NCBI RefSeq assembly: GCF_017939625.1
Contig: NZ_JAGKTC010000003.1
Span: forward strand, 434,001-498,000
Direction: 5' to 3'
Origin: Pseudoxanthomonas helianthi
Lineage (GTDB): Bacteria > Pseudomonadota > Gammaproteobacteria > Xanthomonadales > Xanthomonadaceae
DNA length: 64,000 nucleotides
The position numbers were made by a program, and so were the translations under genes. This document shows positions 1,613 through 51,145 of the stretch, piece by piece. Numbering within the stretch: the first letter of the stretch is position 1; the number at the start of each line of letters is the position of its first letter. The notes beneath the pieces are model-generated. The model was not told the origin of the DNA. It did no database searches and saw only the letters and a list, made by a program, of their open reading frames with translations.

Positions 1613-1720
1613 GTAGAGTCGAGCTTGCTCGACTACTCTTGCCTCTCAGGATTGCCGGACAAAAAGCAGTCGAGCAAGCTCGACTCTACAAAAGCGTTCG
1701 CGACCAAGGCCGCTTCCACA
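1613..1720. repeat. Composite palindromic repeat, SMAG/REP-like, copy 1
   Basis: Two perfect 22-base inverted arms at 1613-1634 and 1668-1689 begin GTAGAGTCGAGCTTGC, and each arm is itself palindromic around GAGCTTGCTC. The GTAG end resembles the SMAG elements of Stenotrophomonas. Directly beside it, 1697-1720 carries the reverse complement of a TGTGGAAGC...TTGGTCGCGAA half-element. The same two modules recur in reverse orientation at 51027-51145. The element fills the gap between tex and the protease gene. Confidence 0.85.
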
Positions 1721-1728
1721 GGAACAAA

Positions 1729-4191
1729 TCAGGTCGAGCCGAGCATCCGCATCAGGTTCGGCAGTCCCTTGCCCTGCATGTAGCCATCGCGTCCCAGGTC
1801 CGTGCAGTTGTCCAGCACGATGCGCTTGACCCGGTCGGGGAAGCCGATGAATTCGCGTCGCGCCGACAGGAAGCTGGCCACCACGCCGGACACGTGCGGC
1901 GCGGCCATGCTGGTGCCGCTCATCTCGACCATCCAGGTTTCCGGCTTGGCCAAATGGAAGCCATGGTGCGCGGAGACGATCTTCTCGCCCGGCGCGACCA
2001 CGTCCGGCTTCTGCCGGCCGTCGGCGGTCGGCCCGCGCGAGGAGAAATACGACACGCCGTAATTGTGCGGACTGCTCTTGTGCACCGAACCGACCGCGAT
2101 GGCGTCCTCCAGATTGGCCGGGTCGCCGATGCTCAGGTCCATGTTGGTCGGATACGCCTCGCCGTCGCCCTGCACCAGGTAGGCCAGGCCTTCGTTGCCT
2201 GCCGCCACCACCACGACCACGCCCTGGCGCCACAGCCGGCGCAGTTCGTTGCACAGCGGCGTGAAGCCGCAACCGTAGCTTTCCGGGTCGAAGTCGCTGC
2301 CCAGGCTCAGGTTGACCCCATGGATCACCAGCTCGCCCGCCTTCTCGTTGATTTCGGCGACCTGTTGCACGGCCTTGATCACCCACGAATCGCGGCCTTC
2401 GCCATCGTCGTTCAGCACTTTGAAGCCGTACAGCTTCGCTTCCGGCGCGACGCCCGAAAACGCCACCTCCTCCGGCGTGCCGTCCGCGCCCGGCAACGGC
2501 GCGCGGCAACTGCCGGCGATGATGCCGGCGACGTGGGTGCCGTGGCCGTCGTGGTCCAGCTTGTGGAAGGCGTCGCCGTCGGCACGGGTCAGTTTCCTTG
2601 GCGCGCCGCGATGGGTGCAGTCCCACTGCGCTTCGACCGTGGCCGGCTTGTCGCGCTGGTTGAAATGCGGATGGTCGGCGCGGATGCCGGTATCCAGCAC
2701 CGCCCAACCGATGCGATTGCCGCCGGCGCGATAGGCATTCTGCGCGGCATCGGCCTGCAACACGCTGCGCGACTGGTTCAACAGTGCGCGCTTGCCGGCA
2801 TCGCGCCACAACCGCTTGAAACTGTATTGGCGATAGTCGTTGCGCAGCGATTCGATCTCGAACCGGGTCAGCCGCGCCGACACGTAACGCTGCAGGCTGT
2901 CTTCCAGGCAGATAGCGTCGTCCAGTTGCTCGCCGGACAGGCCGGTGCTGGCGCCGGCCATCGCGCGGATCCTGGCCAGCAGCGCGGTGCGCGAAGCCTC
3001 GACGTCGCGCTCGCCGGAATGCAGCTTGTCCATCTCGATCAAGGTTTCGTGGCGATAGTCGGGGCCTTGCGACTCCAACTGGTCCGACAGGTCCTTGATC
3101 AACACGGTATTGGAAACCGGCTGGTCGAAACCCGTTCCCACCGCCTGCCGCACGCGTGCGCGCAGCGCCGGGTTCGACAGGTATCCGGACGCCGAATGCG
3201 GCGTGCGCGGGCTTTCCAGGTTGGCCCCGGCGTGCCACACGTTGCTGAAGCGCGTGTCGCCGGCCTTGATGTCGATGTCGTCGCGCAGGTCGCCGTCCAG
3301 CGCGACCGGGTCCGCGCGGTCGGCGACGTTGTGCCAGTGGCGAATGCAGGCCGGGAACGGCAGCTTCTTTTTCTTCAGGCGCTGCTTGAACATGCTGCGC
3401 ACGGCGAACAGGCCCAGCGGCGAACCGATGGTGACGAACAGGGCCACGTCGCAGACCTTGGGATCCATCTTGCGCAGCACTTCGTAGGCGATCATCGAGC
3501 CCTGGCTGTGGGCTACAACCACGAACGGCCCGCCGCCGGCCAGCAGGCGCTCGCGCAGGCTGCGCTCCATCGCCTCGCGCCGCGCCGGCACGAAGAAGAA
3601 GTCGTGCACGTCCTCGAGCAGCGCCGCCGATACCAGGCGCAGCAGCGCTTCGTTGATCTCGTCCAGCAAACCCCGCTTGCGCGTGCCGCCGGCGGCCGGA
3701 CGGTCGGCGCCCATCTCTTTCAGGATGTCCTGCAGCAACTGTTCCTCGCGCGGCGTCTGCGCGATTTCGCTGGCCAGCTGGCGCAGCTCCTTGCGCGGCG
3801 CATGCACGCCCAGCGCGCTGATCACCCGCTGTTCGGCCAGGTTGATGGTCGGGCCCTGGTCGCGATCGTTGCGGGTGCCGGGCTCGGGGGTGGGATAGCG
3901 TTCGCGGTCGACCCAGTAGGCCATGCGCGTGCGCTCGCCCATGTTGCGGCCGAACAACGCCATGTCCCACTGCCCGCGCAACACCTCGGCGGGCGGCTTG
4001 TTGCCGATGCCGTGGATGTAGACCACGGTCTTGGCCTCGCCCTGCGCCATCGCCATGAAGTCGGTCGCGGCGAGCGCTTCCATTTCCGCCGGCCTGGCCG
4101 CGGCGCGTTTGCGGGCTTTCGGCTTCGTCGACTTCTTCGCCGCCTTGGCTGTCTTCGTCGTCTTCGCGACGGTGCGTTTCCGGGTTGCCAT
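1729..4191 (-). CDS. Alpha/beta-hydrolase and subtilisin-like (S8) peptidase fusion
   Basis: This 820-residue protein has two complete catalytic modules. Residues 1-35 are a Lys/Ala/Arg-rich tail, with no signal peptide. Residues 55-340 look like an alpha/beta hydrolase: YIHGIGN (oxyanion loop), AHSQGS with nucleophile Ser229, RADPV with Asp294, and PHSASGY with His332. Residues 490-815 are a subtilase: VLDTGI (Asp500), DGHGTHVAG (His550), AAGNEG (oxyanion Asn666) and GTSMAAP (Ser761). ATG 4191 was chosen over 4242 because GGGAG lies 8 bases upstream. The location is probably cytoplasmic. Family knowledge supports each domain, but the combined function is unknown to me. Confidence 0.85.
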   Translation of the reverse strand: MATRKRTVAKTTKTAKAAKKSTKPKARKRAAARPAEMEALAATDFMAMAQGEAKTVVYIHGIGNKPPAEVLRGQWDMALFGRNMGERTRMAYWVDRERYPTPEPGTRNDRDQGPTINLAEQRVISALGVHAPRKELRQLASEIAQTPREEQLLQDILKEMGADRPAAGGTRKRGLLDEINEALLRLVSAALLEDVHDFFFVPARREAMERSLRERLLAGGGPFVVVAHSQGSMIAYEVLRKMDPKVCDVALFVTIGSPLGLFAVRSMFKQRLKKKKLPFPACIRHWHNVADRADPVALDGDLRDDIDIKAGDTRFSNVWHAGANLESPRTPHSASGYLSNPALRARVRQAVGTGFDQPVSNTVLIKDLSDQLESQGPDYRHETLIEMDKLHSGERDVEASRTALLARIRAMAGASTGLSGEQLDDAICLEDSLQRYVSARLTRFEIESLRNDYRQYSFKRLWRDAGKRALLNQSRSVLQADAAQNAYRAGGNRIGWAVLDTGIRADHPHFNQRDKPATVEAQWDCTHRGAPRKLTRADGDAFHKLDHDGHGTHVAGIIAGSCRAPLPGADGTPEEVAFSGVAPEAKLYGFKVLNDDGEGRDSWVIKAVQQVAEINEKAGELVIHGVNLSLGSDFDPESYGCGFTPLCNELRRLWRQGVVVVVAAGNEGLAYLVQGDGEAYPTNMDLSIGDPANLEDAIAVGSVHKSSPHNYGVSYFSSRGPTADGRQKPDVVAPGEKIVSAHHGFHLAKPETWMVEMSGTSMAAPHVSGVVASFLSARREFIGFPDRVKRIVLDNCTDLGRDGYMQGKGLPNLMRMLGST

Positions 4192-4371: not shown

Positions 4372-4724
4372 GGGGCTGCACTGGCTTCGACGGGGGTTGC
4401 GAAATTGCCTGGCGCATGCCGAGGGGGCAGCTTTCCTCGTAAATCCAGCGGCAAACATCTAGTTGCCAACGACGACAACTACGCTCTCGCCGCTTAAGGC
4501 GTAAGCCCCGAACCCACTTGTGCCCGTGCTCGTGGATGTAGGGTCATTATCACGGGGTACAGCCGAGGTGGCCGCCTGTCTGCCCCGGCTGAACTTACAG
4601 GCTGGTCCTCCGATGCGCTTTGCGCACCGTGCTGTCGGGGGGCGAGATCCAACGGTGAGCTAAGCATGTAGTGCCGGGGATGGAGTGCCTTCGGACGCGG
4701 GTTCGACTCCCGCCAGCTCCACCA
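4372..4724 (+). ncRNA. ssrA: Transfer-messenger RNA (tmRNA)
   Basis: The 5' GGGGCTG (4372-4378) pairs with CAGCTCC (4714-4720), followed by ACCA, giving the tRNA-Ala-like acceptor stem. The T-arm GTTCGACTC lies at 4701-4709. The reading frame resumes at GCC 4465 and encodes ANDDNYALAA followed by TAA at 4495-4497. With SmpB, tmRNA rescues stalled ribosomes and tags the unfinished protein for proteolysis. Length is 353 bases, normal for the one-piece form. It is flanked by its own promoter and terminator. smpB is not in the window. Confidence 0.97.
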
Positions 4725-6424: not shown

Positions 6425-7921
6425 TCAGCTTTCGGCGGGCAACAGCGCCAATGCGGATTCGGCGTCGAAGGTGCGGTCCCAATCGCCCATCAGCGCCAGG
6501 TACAGCAGCTTGTCGAACTCGCTGCCGAAACGGCGGATGACCGCATCCGGATCGGGCACCAGCTTGGCGTCGGCGATCAGGCCGAAATGGACCCGGTTGT
6601 TGTAGCTGAGGATCGAAATGCCCAGGCCGATCGACCCGGTCTGCGGTACCCAGAACATCAGTTCCCGCAGCTTGCTGCCGCCCAGGTACAGCGGTTGCTG
6701 CGGGCCGGGCACGTTGGTCGCCACTGCCGTGGCCTTGCGGCTGAACAGTTCCAGGGCCACGCCCTGCAATGCTGCCGGGGCCATGCCGAGCGCCGCCAAA
6801 AGCCCAAATGCGACAATGGCTTGGCGAGAATTCTTTAGGTTATTCATGCATTCCGCGACGCGTTCGACCCGGCGTATCGGATTGGGTTCGCCGACCGGCA
6901 ATTCGAGGAAGACCAGACCGAAGTGGTTGCCCAGTTTGCGCGCGTGTTCCAGCGGACGCAGGTTGACCGGCACGGTCGCGCGCAGAGTCACCCCGTCGAT
7001 GTTTTCGCCCCGCTCCAGCAGGTAGTCGCGCAGCGCACCGGCCGCAGCGGCCATCAGCACGTCGTTGACGGTGCAATCGCAGGCGCGGCCGACCGCCTTC
7101 ACCTCGTCCAGATCCAGCGGCTCGGCCCAGGCGACGCGCTTGCTGACCCCCAGCTTGCCGCGCAACAAGGTCGGCGGGTCGTCGGACAGGGCCAATGCAG
7201 CCAACAGTTCGCGGCCGATCTCGCCGCCCTCCTTCGCCAGCATCGTGGCCAGGGTCGGGTCCTGGACCATCTCCATGCCCTTGCCCAGCACCTTGCCGCC
7301 CAGCTTCATGTAGCGGTCGATCGCACCGACCCGGCGCGCGACGCCGGCGCCGTCCTGCTTCAGCCAGGCACTGCCCAGGTCGGCCTGCTTTTCCGGCTTC
7401 CGCTGCACGTCGGTCAGCGACAGCAGCACTTGCACCAGGGCGATGCCATCCGCATAGCTGTGGTGGATGCGCGCGACCACCGCCGAGCCGCCGCCGTATT
7501 TCTCGACCAGGTGGAATTGCCAGAGCGGCTTGGTCTTGTCCAGGGGCGAAGACGCCAACTGGCTGACGAAACGCTCCAGCGCACGCTTTTCCGAACGCGG
7601 ATCGCTGCGCCCCGGCAATGCCGAAATGCGTACGTGCCAGTCGAGGTCGAAATTCGCATCGTCGACCCACGATGCGCCGGCCGGCGTATCGACCGCCTTC
7701 TGCCGGAAGCGCGGATAGGCGAGGAAGCGCTCGCGGATCAGCCGCTTCAGCCGTTCCAGCGTCATCGGCTCGTCCAGCATCAGCACGCCGGTGATCATCA
7801 TCGGGTTGGTCGGCCGCTCCATCCGCAGCCATGCGGTATCGACGCGCGACATCGCTTCGCGCTTGGACCGCCTTTGGCCTTCGCCTGCAGGCCGCTTCGC
7901 GCGCTGTGTGGAAATGGCCAT
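6425..7921 (-). CDS. Wax ester synthase/diacylglycerol acyltransferase-like protein
   Basis: The 498 residues match the WS/DGAT family in length. The active-site motif HHSYADG (HHxxxDG) lies near residue 150. The start of the family, SRVDTAWLRMERPTNPM, follows a basic 23-residue extension. These enzymes join fatty acyl-CoA to alcohols or diacylglycerol to store neutral lipid. ATG 7921 has GGGAGG seven bases upstream, whereas the ATG at 7852 lacks one, so the basic N-terminus is probably real. Substrate specificity cannot be read from sequence. The gene follows a membrane-protein gene on the same strand by 31 bases. Confidence 0.88.
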   Translation of the reverse strand: MAISTQRAKRPAGEGQRRSKREAMSRVDTAWLRMERPTNPMMITGVLMLDEPMTLERLKRLIRERFLAYPRFRQKAVDTPAGASWVDDANFDLDWHVRISALPGRSDPRSEKRALERFVSQLASSPLDKTKPLWQFHLVEKYGGGSAVVARIHHSYADGIALVQVLLSLTDVQRKPEKQADLGSAWLKQDGAGVARRVGAIDRYMKLGGKVLGKGMEMVQDPTLATMLAKEGGEIGRELLAALALSDDPPTLLRGKLGVSKRVAWAEPLDLDEVKAVGRACDCTVNDVLMAAAAGALRDYLLERGENIDGVTLRATVPVNLRPLEHARKLGNHFGLVFLELPVGEPNPIRRVERVAECMNNLKNSRQAIVAFGLLAALGMAPAALQGVALELFSRKATAVATNVPGPQQPLYLGGSKLRELMFWVPQTGSIGLGISILSYNNRVHFGLIADAKLVPDPDAVIRRFGSEFDKLLYLALMGDWDRTFDAESALALLPAES

Positions 7922-51026: not shown

Positions 51027-51145
51027 TGTGGGAGCAACCTTGGTCGCGAATGCCTTCCCCGGCCCTTGTAGAGTCGAGCTTGCTCGACTGCTTTCGCTTA
51101 CGCGCCTCGATCGGGCGAAGAGCAGTCGAGCAAGCTCGACTCTAC
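51027..51145. repeat. Composite palindromic repeat, SMAG/REP-like, copy 2
   Basis: TGTGGGAGCAACCTTGGTCG (51027-51046) is followed by perfect 22-base inverted arms at 51068-51089 and 51124-51145 that begin GTAGAGTCGAGCTTGC. Both modules match copy 1 at 1613-1720 in reverse orientation. Confidence 0.85.

What the first reader, a model, noticed from the sequence alone, without database searches (positions are those of the whole stretch)
1729..4191. Protein with two complete hydrolase triads: alpha/beta hydrolase fused to a subtilase
The N-terminal domain keeps Ser229, Asp294 and His332 in lipase-like order, and the C-terminal domain keeps Asp500, His550 and Ser761. A Lys/Arg tail and the lack of a signal peptide point to a cytoplasmic role. 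Such a fusion may act in conflict or stress systems, or the protease may activate the lipase by self-cleavage. I do not know a characterised example.
Basis: partly seen in the sequence, partly recalled or inferred. Interest (0 to 1): 0.62.

Follow-up and report, generated by a model that had tools for sequence, protein, structure and literature searches.

The report
Protease fused to a lipase-like enzyme
A bacterial gene encodes one protein joining a lipase-like enzyme to a protein-cutting enzyme with its own built-in lock, an arrangement found in at least six bacterial phyla that resembles, but is not proven to be, a self-activating immune or cell-suicide switch.

Summary
They are invariant in 53 of 53 full-length fusions aligned, from six phyla. 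Structure prediction gives a lipase-like alpha/beta-hydrolase (~50-355), a pro-subtilisin-like propeptide (377-467) and an S8 domain (~473-820): a zymogen layout.

Two comparisons suggest function. (1) Eight S8 relatives lacking this hydrolase were read; each is followed by a partner gene, either a hydrolase-like protein or an Avs1a/LmuA-like metallo-beta-lactamase. (2) Hydrolase relatives outside the fusion often lie beside, or fused to, caspase/trypsin genes (14 of 65 loci) or VMAP genes (14 more); without HMM-seed loci 8 and 10 of 55; 0 of 20 control windows.

Best reading: a single-chain protease-hydrolase effector whose subtilase processes itself and activates or releases the hydrolase. 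No activity or phage defence is shown. Against it: no sensor domain found, ordinary neighbours, and in Lysobacteraceae a fixed site beside ssrA (27 of 28 loci). New variant of a known kind (protease-activated effectors).

The parts
1729..4191 (-). whole coding sequence of the fusion protein, 820 aa plus stop
   Evidence: translation; 100% self-match in own genome and orthologues
4045..4191 (-). residues 1-49: Lys/Arg/Ala-rich N-terminal tail, low-confidence in the model
   Evidence: 14 K/R in 33 residues; pLDDT < 50 for residues 1-49
3127..4044 (-). residues 50-355: alpha/beta-hydrolase domain, lipase/phospholipase-like (ends approximate)
   Evidence: AlphaFold pLDDT 86, pTM 0.88 for residues 47-362; Foldseek and VIA matches to lipases, LPLA2, LCAT, DDHD
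3526..3915 (-). residues 93-222: helical insertion between strands 88-92 and 223-228, with low-confidence loops at 115-134 and 167-173 (candidate lid or gate, inferred)
   Evidence: secondary structure and pLDDT, (same pattern); mean conservation 0.39-0.45 at 101-180
3505..3507 (-). Ser229, nucleophile (after strand 223-228)
   Evidence: (53 of 53)
3310..3312 (-). Asp294, acid (after strand 283-290)
   Evidence: (53 of 53)
3196..3198 (-). His332 (after strand 315-319)
   Evidence: (53 of 53)
2791..3063 (-). residues 377-467: pro-subtilisin-like propeptide
   Evidence: VIA-align: model 377-820 on residues 2-396 of a pro-form of Tk-subtilisin (2zwp_B), Z 28.9, rmsd 3.4, 337 aligned
2731..2790 (-). 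residues 468-487: low-confidence junction between propeptide and protease, overlapping the start of the S8 domain; candidate self-processing stretch (inferred)
   Evidence: pLDDT < 50
1732..2775 (-). residues ~473-820: S8 subtilase catalytic domain
   Evidence: Pfam PF00082 3.9e-49; mature subtilisins align from 473-476 on
2692..2694 (-). Asp500 of the subtilase triad
   Evidence: 53 of 53
2542..2544 (-). His550 of the subtilase triad
   Evidence: 53 of 53
1909..1911 (-). Ser761 of the subtilase triad (GTSMA)
   Evidence: 53 of 53

Best explanation
A cytoplasmic, single-chain protease-effector protein. The C-terminal subtilase is made as a zymogen held by its own propeptide (residues 377-467), and the N-terminal alpha/beta-hydrolase is the effector. 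On a trigger that is still unknown, the subtilase becomes active, cuts the chain at the propeptide junction and/or in the hydrolase's lid, and so switches on or releases the hydrolase. The hydrolase then attacks lipid or other acyl esters and stops or kills the cell, as an abortive-infection-like response to phages or other invaders. Shown here: the domains (predicted), both conserved triads, the propeptide (predicted), and the repeated occurrence of relatives of both halves with conflict-type partners. Inferred: trigger, cleavage sites, order of events, lipid substrate, cellular place, anti-phage role.
For: Fold and triads. The best solved matches of the C-terminal half are pro-subtilisins, propeptide included. 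S8 relatives without this hydrolase (profile comparison 45% identity over 356 columns, E 5e-105) lie directly upstream of a partner gene in all eight loci read. That partner is a hydrolase-like protein in five (Rhizobium, Sinorhizobium, Rhodococcus), or an MBL protein matching Avs1a (7e-41 to 2e-44, below NCBIfam's cut-off) and LmuA (2e-46 to 1e-52) in three. Of 17 plasmid records listed in both tables, mostly closely related Rhizobium, 16 have the S8 and hydrolase-like matches adjacent. The fused hydrolase's relatives sit with EAD1-, EAD5- or TPR-S-linked trypsins, AAA/STAND-like NTPases, a TIR gene, caspases, VMAP-M2 proteins, or are fused to trypsin. PADLOC 'subtilase' model PDLC03014 scores 1.2e-70. 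Published precedents: proteases activate gated MBL pro-nucleases, with the authors suggesting other proteolytically activated enzyme classes (PMC12799240; abstract, sections 8 and 9 and passages); caspase/alpha-beta-hydrolase pairing in VMAP systems (PMC7159879; passages); the fungal subtilase HET-Q2 activates gasdermin HET-Q1 (PMC10989679; passages).
Against: No activity, cleavage or phage phenotype is known to me or was found. The fusion has no conserved neighbour across lineages. Those of its window neighbours that Pfam recognises are Tex, OmpA, WS/DGAT, ThiF and pilus genes. PADLOC hits among 123 flanking ORFs are scattered, at most 2 members per model (single strong hits such as mad3 1.9e-30 and E1-E2 5e-13 occur). 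In Lysobacteraceae it sits at one fixed place beside ssrA in 27 of 28 loci, unlike a mobile defence gene. No sensor domain was recognised. The separate rhizobial hydrolase is not shown to be the same family (hhalign probability 21.7%). 37 of 65 surveyed non-S8 hydrolase loci had no protease or VMAP hit by my HMMs within 2.5 kb on the same strand, and in half of the 28 positive loci the hit is a VMAP protein; in the four VMAP seeds Pfam showed VMAP-M2 but no protease domain.
Confidence: 0.43

Rival explanations
1. The protease is the effector and the hydrolase domain is its sensor or regulator: an acyl ligand or phage-made lipid change is read by the hydrolase, which frees the subtilase to degrade cell or phage proteins.
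For: IetS, an anti-phage S8 peptidase, is the nearest named defence subtilase model (48 bits over 549-776). The propeptide-zymogen layout fits release of the protease.
Against: The hydrolase triad is invariant (53 of 53), so catalysis probably matters. Relatives of the hydrolase occur with trypsins and caspases as well, which fits a shared effector better than a protease-specific sensor.
Confidence: 0.15
2. A housekeeping or stress enzyme of protein and lipid turnover, for example linked to trans-translation through its fixed place beside the tmRNA gene in Lysobacteraceae, or to storage lipids.
For: Divergent from ssrA in 27 of 28 Lysobacteraceae loci. Window neighbours with Pfam matches are ordinary genes, among them a wax ester synthase/diacylglycerol acyltransferase at 6425-7921.
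Against: No tmRNA found near the fusion in the scanned loci outside Lysobacteraceae (some have short flanks). Full length in only 13 of 36 same-genus genomes, no remnant at 21 of 30 ssrA sites examined, and broken in several lineages, so it is dispensable.
Confidence: 0.22
3. An exported toxin used against other bacteria (secreted lipase/protease effector).
For: Lipase-like effectors of secretion systems exist (recalled, not tested); S8 proteases are often secreted (recalled).
Against: No hydrophobic signal segment seen by eye in the N-terminus (no predictor run). No immunity-like partner conserved. The nine window neighbours scanned show pilus genes but no toxin-delivery match.
Confidence: 0.07

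Closest known systems
Gated MBL nuclease-protease pairs of Hachiman, AVAST, Lamassu and DRT, and caspase-nuclease 'canu' loci (PMC12799240)
   Same: A protease coupled to a second hydrolase, here predicted to need proteolytic activation; the S8 clade of the window protein also occurs beside Avs1a/LmuA-like MBL genes.
   Different: The partner here is an alpha/beta-hydrolase, not an MBL nuclease; the protease is a subtilase; both are one chain; no sensor or NTPase gene is seen beside it.
Caspase / alpha-beta-hydrolase pairs of vWA-MoxR-VMAP ternary systems (PMC7159879)
   Same: Relatives of the window's hydrolase domain lie next to VMAP-M2 genes and next to caspase genes.
   Different: Protease is S8 instead of caspase; no VMAP-M2 match in the window's genome (but its control genomes were silent too); no MoxR or vWA domain among the nine window neighbours scanned.
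HET-Q1/HET-Q2 fungal gasdermin-subtilase pair (PMC10989679, passages)
   Same: A subtilase that switches on a membrane-attacking partner by proteolysis; here this is only proposed.
   Different: Partner is a hydrolase with a catalytic triad rather than a pore-former, and is fused; different organisms; no homology claimed outside the S8 domain.
IetAS (S8 peptidase IetS with AAA partner IetA)
   Same: S8 peptidase; partial PADLOC match (48 bits).
   Different: 35 bits against an NCBIfam cut-off of 900; no AAA domain in the Pfam-scanned neighbours.
S8 peptidase with WD40 repeats beside STAND (NACHT) sensors at a DGR locus (PMC10907252, passages)
   Same: An S8 peptidase in a putative conflict system.
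   Different: Separate gene with C-terminal WD40 repeats and a neighbouring sensor; no hydrolase mentioned in the text ('hydrolase' 0 occurrences).

Membership tests
S8 subtilase (PF00082) | Sequence match above the curated cut-off and Asp/His/Ser triad | tested here: met
   168 bits against 21.8; D500, H550, S761 in 53 of 53
S8 subtilase (PF00082) | Propeptide in front of the catalytic domain (pro-subtilisin layout) | tested here: met
   Model 377-820 aligns to pro-Tk-subtilisin 2-396, Z 28.9, rmsd 3.4, 337 aligned; predicted structure only
alpha/beta-hydrolase superfamily | Fold | tested here: met
   Predicted model; 4x97_A LPLA2 Z 14.0, rmsd 3.6, 186 aligned. Foldseek's best is A. fulgidus lipase E 4.1e-5, but with low TM-scores (0.34/0.25) and rmsd 15
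alpha/beta-hydrolase superfamily | Nucleophile, acid and histidine in canonical order after strands | tested here: met
   S229, D294, H332 follow strands 223-228, 283-290, 315-319; invariant. Geometry of the triad in space was not measured.
Pfam Abhydrolase_6 | Score above the curated cut-off | tested here: not met
   20.6 bits against 26.3
Phospholipase / lipase (activity) | Hydrolysis of lipid esters | not testable with these tools
   Fold resemblance only
Gated nuclease-protease pairs (PMC12799240) | MBL-fold nuclease partner | tested here: not met
   Partner domain is an alpha/beta-hydrolase
Gated nuclease-protease pairs (PMC12799240) | Active-site-blocking insertion cut by the partner protease | tested here: inconclusive
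   Insertion 93-222 with two low-confidence loops; no conserved cut site was identified, and blocking was not modelled
VMAP caspase / alpha-beta-hydrolase pair (PMC7159879) | Caspase as the protease | tested here: not met
   The protease is S8
VMAP caspase / alpha-beta-hydrolase pair (PMC7159879) | VMAP / MoxR / vWA core genes | tested here: inconclusive
   VMAP-M2 search of the own genome: 0 matches, but no control genome rang; none among nine window neighbours; MoxR and vWA not searched genome-wide
VMAP caspase / alpha-beta-hydrolase pair (PMC7159879) | Homologous hydrolase domain | tested here: met
   Hydrolase HMM matches lie next to VMAP-M2 (PF19965) genes in Streptomyces-genus loci L159, L161, L174, L178; that these are the very family of the paper is inferred from that context
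IetS (IetAS system) | NCBIfam IteS_antiphage score and AAA partner | tested here: not met
   35 bits against a cut-off of 900; no AAA domain in nine window neighbours
Anti-phage defence system (function) | Protection against phage | not testable with these tools
   none

The most novel reading that the evidence does not exclude
A one-gene immune suicide switch: a self-processing subtilase zymogen that activates a fused phospholipase-like effector. It would be a widespread class of proteolytically activated lipid-attacking effector, in which the alpha/beta-hydrolase plays the part that gasdermins or gated nucleases play elsewhere and is re-used with caspase, trypsin and subtilase partners.
Probability: 0.37. 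Interest if true: 0.82.

Novelty: new variant of a known kind. Interest (0 to 1): 0.6.

Why it matters
[quoted passage not shown] This hydrolase family, fused to subtilases or trypsins and found beside trypsin and caspase genes, is a concrete candidate for such a class. The fusion puts protease and putative effector in one chain, so it can be tested with one gene and two point mutants. If true, it would link bacterial protease-triggered death to lipid attack and give a minimal single-protein analogue of caspase-gasdermin or subtilase-gasdermin pairs.

Tried and rejected
Rejected: an ordinary extracellular protease (no signal-like segment by eye; the own genome's two other S8 matches reach only 31% and 38% over parts). 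Rejected: phage or plasmid cargo: of 25 phage records with a match, none covers 80% of the query, and the 20 listed match the S8 part only; no plasmid record covers 80%. Rejected: integration at tmRNA: the gene lies at the 5' side of ssrA, not its 3' end. A first genome-contig scan with the single protein found nothing; the same scan with an alignment worked. PADLOC scan of 123 flanking ORFs (a selection from 218 candidates of 29 loci) showed no recurring defence family. The separate rhizobial hydrolase could not be shown to be the same family (BLAST best E 0.22; hhalign probability 21.7%, E 1e-3). I could not find which system the PADLOC model named 'subtilase' comes from. Neither the Pfam run nor the structure lists showed a known sensor domain; this is not evidence that none exists. 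Literature: ten searches listed no paper whose title or abstract start names a subtilase/alpha-beta-hydrolase fusion; only the top rows of each were seen, and most subscription papers are not in that library. PMC7159879 mentions subtilisin once, for NucA systems. PMC13092281 and PMC9079055 were seen as passages only.

Weak points of the survey: the protease and VMAP HMMs were built partly from ten of the surveyed loci (L102-L105, L112, L158, L159, L161, L174, L178), so counts are also given without them; the 12 loci were chosen for long open frames; the 40 are the best-scoring, not a random draw; ORFs were called mechanically; the hydrolase half of the trypsin fusions rests on my own HMM, not on Pfam. 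The control is 20 arbitrary windows from 14 of the same Streptomyces-genus genomes; there is no such control for the proteobacterial loci. One S8 hit 5.2 kb away on the other strand (L187) was not counted. On rechecking I lowered two odds slightly, because half of the survey's hits are VMAP proteins whose protease domain I could not confirm in the four seeds, and because a lipid-synthesis gene lies near.
Full report
OBSERVATION. The interval 1729-4191 holds an 820-aa reading frame on the minus strand; the finding did not give the strand. Pfam finds Peptidase_S8 at 497-803 (3.9e-49) and only a sub-threshold Abhydrolase_6 match at 208-302 (20.6 bits, cut-off 26.3).

HOW WIDESPREAD. In 61 genomes (own plus 60 relatives) the full-length fusion occurs in the own genome, in 13 of 36 same-genus genomes (66-73% identity) and in 2 of 24 same-order genomes (50%). 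One more same-genus genome (G004) has a copy split over several frames and one (G019) keeps only residues 1-353. In 398 genomes drawn from the phylum, 19 matched the hydrolase domain. Of the 18 besides the own genome, 14 were read in context and none showed an S8 hit; the other four were not examined. So the fusion is rare but broadly scattered. The tree of 41 fusions spans Pseudomonadota, Cyanobacteriota, Acidobacteriota, Chloroflexota, Gemmatimonadota and Verrucomicrobiota; several of these are single metagenome bins, and long branches make deep placements unsure.

CONSERVATION. In 53 full-length rows (window plus 52; the rows dropped are named under the observation check) S229, D294, H332, D500, H550, N666 and S761 are invariant, as are H60, G61 and D299. 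Residues 101-180 and the N-terminal tail vary. The Lys/Arg richness of the tail is usual (46 of 53 rows net positive) but its sequence is not kept.

STRUCTURE. The full-length model (40-row alignment) has mean pLDDT 74.5 and pTM 0.74, with several low-confidence stretches inside the S8 domain. The hydrolase domain alone (45-row alignment) gives pLDDT 86 and pTM 0.88. Its strand order places S229 after 223-228, D294 after 283-290 and H332 after 315-319, the canonical alpha/beta-hydrolase arrangement (canonical order recalled). Its best solved relatives by VIA-align are phospholipases/acyltransferases: lysosomal phospholipase A2 (Z 14.0, rmsd 3.6, 186 aligned), LCAT (Z 13.0, rmsd 3.6, 183 aligned) and acyl-protein thioesterase 1 (Z 12.6, rmsd 3.5, 181 aligned), with many other alpha/beta-hydrolases nearly tied. 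Foldseek ranks A. fulgidus lipase (E 4.1e-5) and the Nir2 DDHD domain (5.5e-4) first, with low TM-scores and only 4 matches at E <= 0.001. So the superfamily is clear and the substrate is not. The C-terminal half matches pro-forms of subtilisin: model 377-820 on pro-Tk-subtilisin residues 2-396, Z 28.9, rmsd 3.4, 337 aligned (Foldseek ranks the same group first). So a propeptide (377-467) separates the hydrolase from the protease (~473-820), with a low-confidence junction at 468-487.

THE S8 HALF HAS OTHER PARTNERS ELSEWHERE. The closest S8 proteins lacking this hydrolase are plasmid genes of Rhizobium, Sinorhizobium, Rhodococcus, Methylorubrum, Paroceanicella and Miltoncostaea (about 38-43% identity within residues 425-820; profile E 5e-105). 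In all eight loci read, the gene is followed 7-12 bp on by a partner. In the Rhizobium, Sinorhizobium and Rhodococcus loci it is a 430-442 aa protein with an invariant GHSFG motif. Of two such proteins scanned, Pfam gave a sub-threshold alpha/beta-hydrolase match for the Rhodococcus one and none for the Rhizobium one. In Methylorubrum, Paroceanicella and Miltoncostaea it is an MBL protein matching Avs1a and LmuA models. Among the rows listed in the two plasmid tables, 17 records are shared, mostly closely related Rhizobium. In 16 the S8 and partner matches are adjacent; NC_008269 is the exception for its best-scoring places. The rhizobial partner is not demonstrably the same family as the fused hydrolase.

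THE HYDROLASE HALF HAS OTHER PROTEASES ELSEWHERE. Kitasatospora L075: hydrolase, EAD1-trypsin, EAD1 protein, AAA_16 protein. Streptomyces L076, L078 and L080: hydrolase, small AAA-like protein, large AAA_16/NACHT-like protein, EAD5-trypsin, and a second trypsin confirmed by Pfam in L076 and L078. Proteobacterial L103 and L104: hydrolase next to TPR-S-trypsin, with a TIR gene in L104; L102: next to a caspase-like gene (Peptidase_C14 20.1 bits, just under its cut-off of 21.4). In a wider set of 66 loci (14 proteobacterial, 52 Streptomyces-genus), 65 have the hydrolase by HMM. 14 of 65 have a caspase or trypsin hit and 14 more a VMAP hit within 2.5 kb on the same strand; among the former are five trypsin-hydrolase frames (L193, L195-L198). 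Leaving out the ten loci that supplied HMM seeds, the figures are 8 and 10 of 55. None of 20 control windows (288 kb) from 14 of the same Streptomyces-genus genomes had any hit. Pfam confirms VMAP-M2 beside five hydrolases (a partial match in L176), but no protease domain in those VMAP proteins; a caspase-WD40-type protein beside L164, which my HMMs missed; and Trypsin_2 in three of the five trypsin fusions, the other two not scanned. The remaining 37 loci showed no HMM hit within that distance: L164 is one of them, and in L155 and L156 EAD5-trypsin genes lie 4.6 kb away.

GENOMIC PLACE. In 26 of 28 distinct Lysobacteraceae loci scanned (broken copies included) ARAGORN finds a tmRNA gene just upstream and divergent. 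For L005 the DNA search finds it too, giving 27 of 28; L071 is the exception and L062 was not scanned. No tmRNA was found in the scanned loci outside the family. Of 30 ssrA loci of the genus returned (37 of 38 genomes matched), 21 show no trace of the gene within the 1.5 kb held on each side. Window neighbours by Pfam are Tex, OmpA, WS/DGAT, ThiF, PilY1 and PilW-type genes; three of nine scanned had no match. The gene is thus a fixed-site, dispensable gene, not a typical island gene: no neighbour recurs across lineages, and PADLOC hits in flanks are sporadic. This counts against a simple 'mobile defence gene' story.

MECHANISM. The most economical reading joins four facts: a conserved zymogen-type protease, a conserved hydrolase whose relatives occur with conflict-type proteases, a protease clade found with other hydrolases (including relatives of nucleases known to be protease-activated), and fusion of the two. 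Published work shows trypsin-like proteases and a caspase activating gated MBL nucleases, and its discussion expects other enzyme classes (PMC12799240; outline, sections 8 and 9 and passages seen). VMAP systems pair caspases with alpha/beta-hydrolases (PMC7159879; passages seen). In fungi a subtilase activates a gasdermin (PMC10989679; passages seen). An S8 peptidase beside STAND sensors has been noted at a DGR locus (PMC10907252; passages seen). I therefore favour self-processing that activates or frees the hydrolase, with membrane or acyl-ester attack as the outcome (confidence 0.43). Which side is the effector, the trigger and the substrate are inferred.

NOVELTY. The parts are known families, and protease-activated effectors are a known kind. 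The single-chain subtilase/alpha-beta-hydrolase with a propeptide, its spread over six phyla and the link to caspase- and trypsin-associated hydrolases were not found in the listings of the ten paper searches (named under Tried and rejected). Verdict: new variant of a known kind.

Noticed in passing
window 4372-4724 (+): tmRNA gene ssrA (tag ANDDNYALAA), divergent from the fusion gene with 180 bases between them. In Lysobacteraceae this pairing is nearly constant (27 of 28 loci).
   Followed up: yes
window 1617-1685 and 51072-51141: Paired 18-bp palindromes (AGTCGAGCWWGCTCGACT) about 50 bp apart. The pattern occurs at 45 places in the own genome, mostly in such pairs, with none for the reversed control pattern: a REP-like dispersed repeat just downstream of the fusion gene.
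   Followed up: partly
window 6425-7921 (-): Wax ester synthase/diacylglycerol acyltransferase (PF03007, PF06974) near the lipase-like fusion, beyond an OmpA gene; link unknown.
   Followed up: no
L027 734-7409 (Methylorubrum extorquens CM4 plasmid pCMU01): Adenylate/guanylate cyclase, E2-domain and TIR-domain genes lie directly upstream of an S8 peptidase + Avs1a/LmuA-like MBL pair: a possible cyclic-nucleotide system with a subtilase-nuclease pair.
   Followed up: partly
L193 6971-9196, L195 3442-5580, L196 1628-4126, L197 3514-5679, L198 1902-3941: Streptomyces-genus open frames holding a trypsin domain at the N-terminal side and the alpha/beta-hydrolase at the C-terminal end (Pfam Trypsin_2 confirmed in the three scanned): the mirror-image fusion with a different protease.
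   Followed up: partly
L076, L078, L080, L155, L156: Operon-like run of alpha/beta-hydrolase, small AAA-like protein, large NACHT/AAA_16 protein, EAD5-trypsin and a further trypsin; in make-up it resembles gasdermin operons with two proteases (resemblance recalled, not tested). Pfam was run on L076, L078 and L080 only; in L155 and L156 only the hydrolase, EAD5-trypsin and trypsin were seen, by local HMMs.
   Followed up: partly
L015/L042, L018, L043, L062, L071: Broken copies: split frames in Pseudoxanthomonas winnipegensis, Xanthomonas populi and X. phaseoli; in X. hortorum (L062) the two halves lie about 6 kb apart; in G019 (L018) the protease half is missing from the frame.
   Followed up: no
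L061, L067, L068, L070, L074 (about 1.8-7.9 kb): Cyanobacterial fusions appear to share upstream genes of similar lengths and spacing, likely ordinary synteny among close relatives.
   Followed up: no
L072 6291-10499: In a Burkholderiales MAG the fusion's frame is open for about 570 further residues upstream (1402 aa); not examined whether coding.
   Followed up: no
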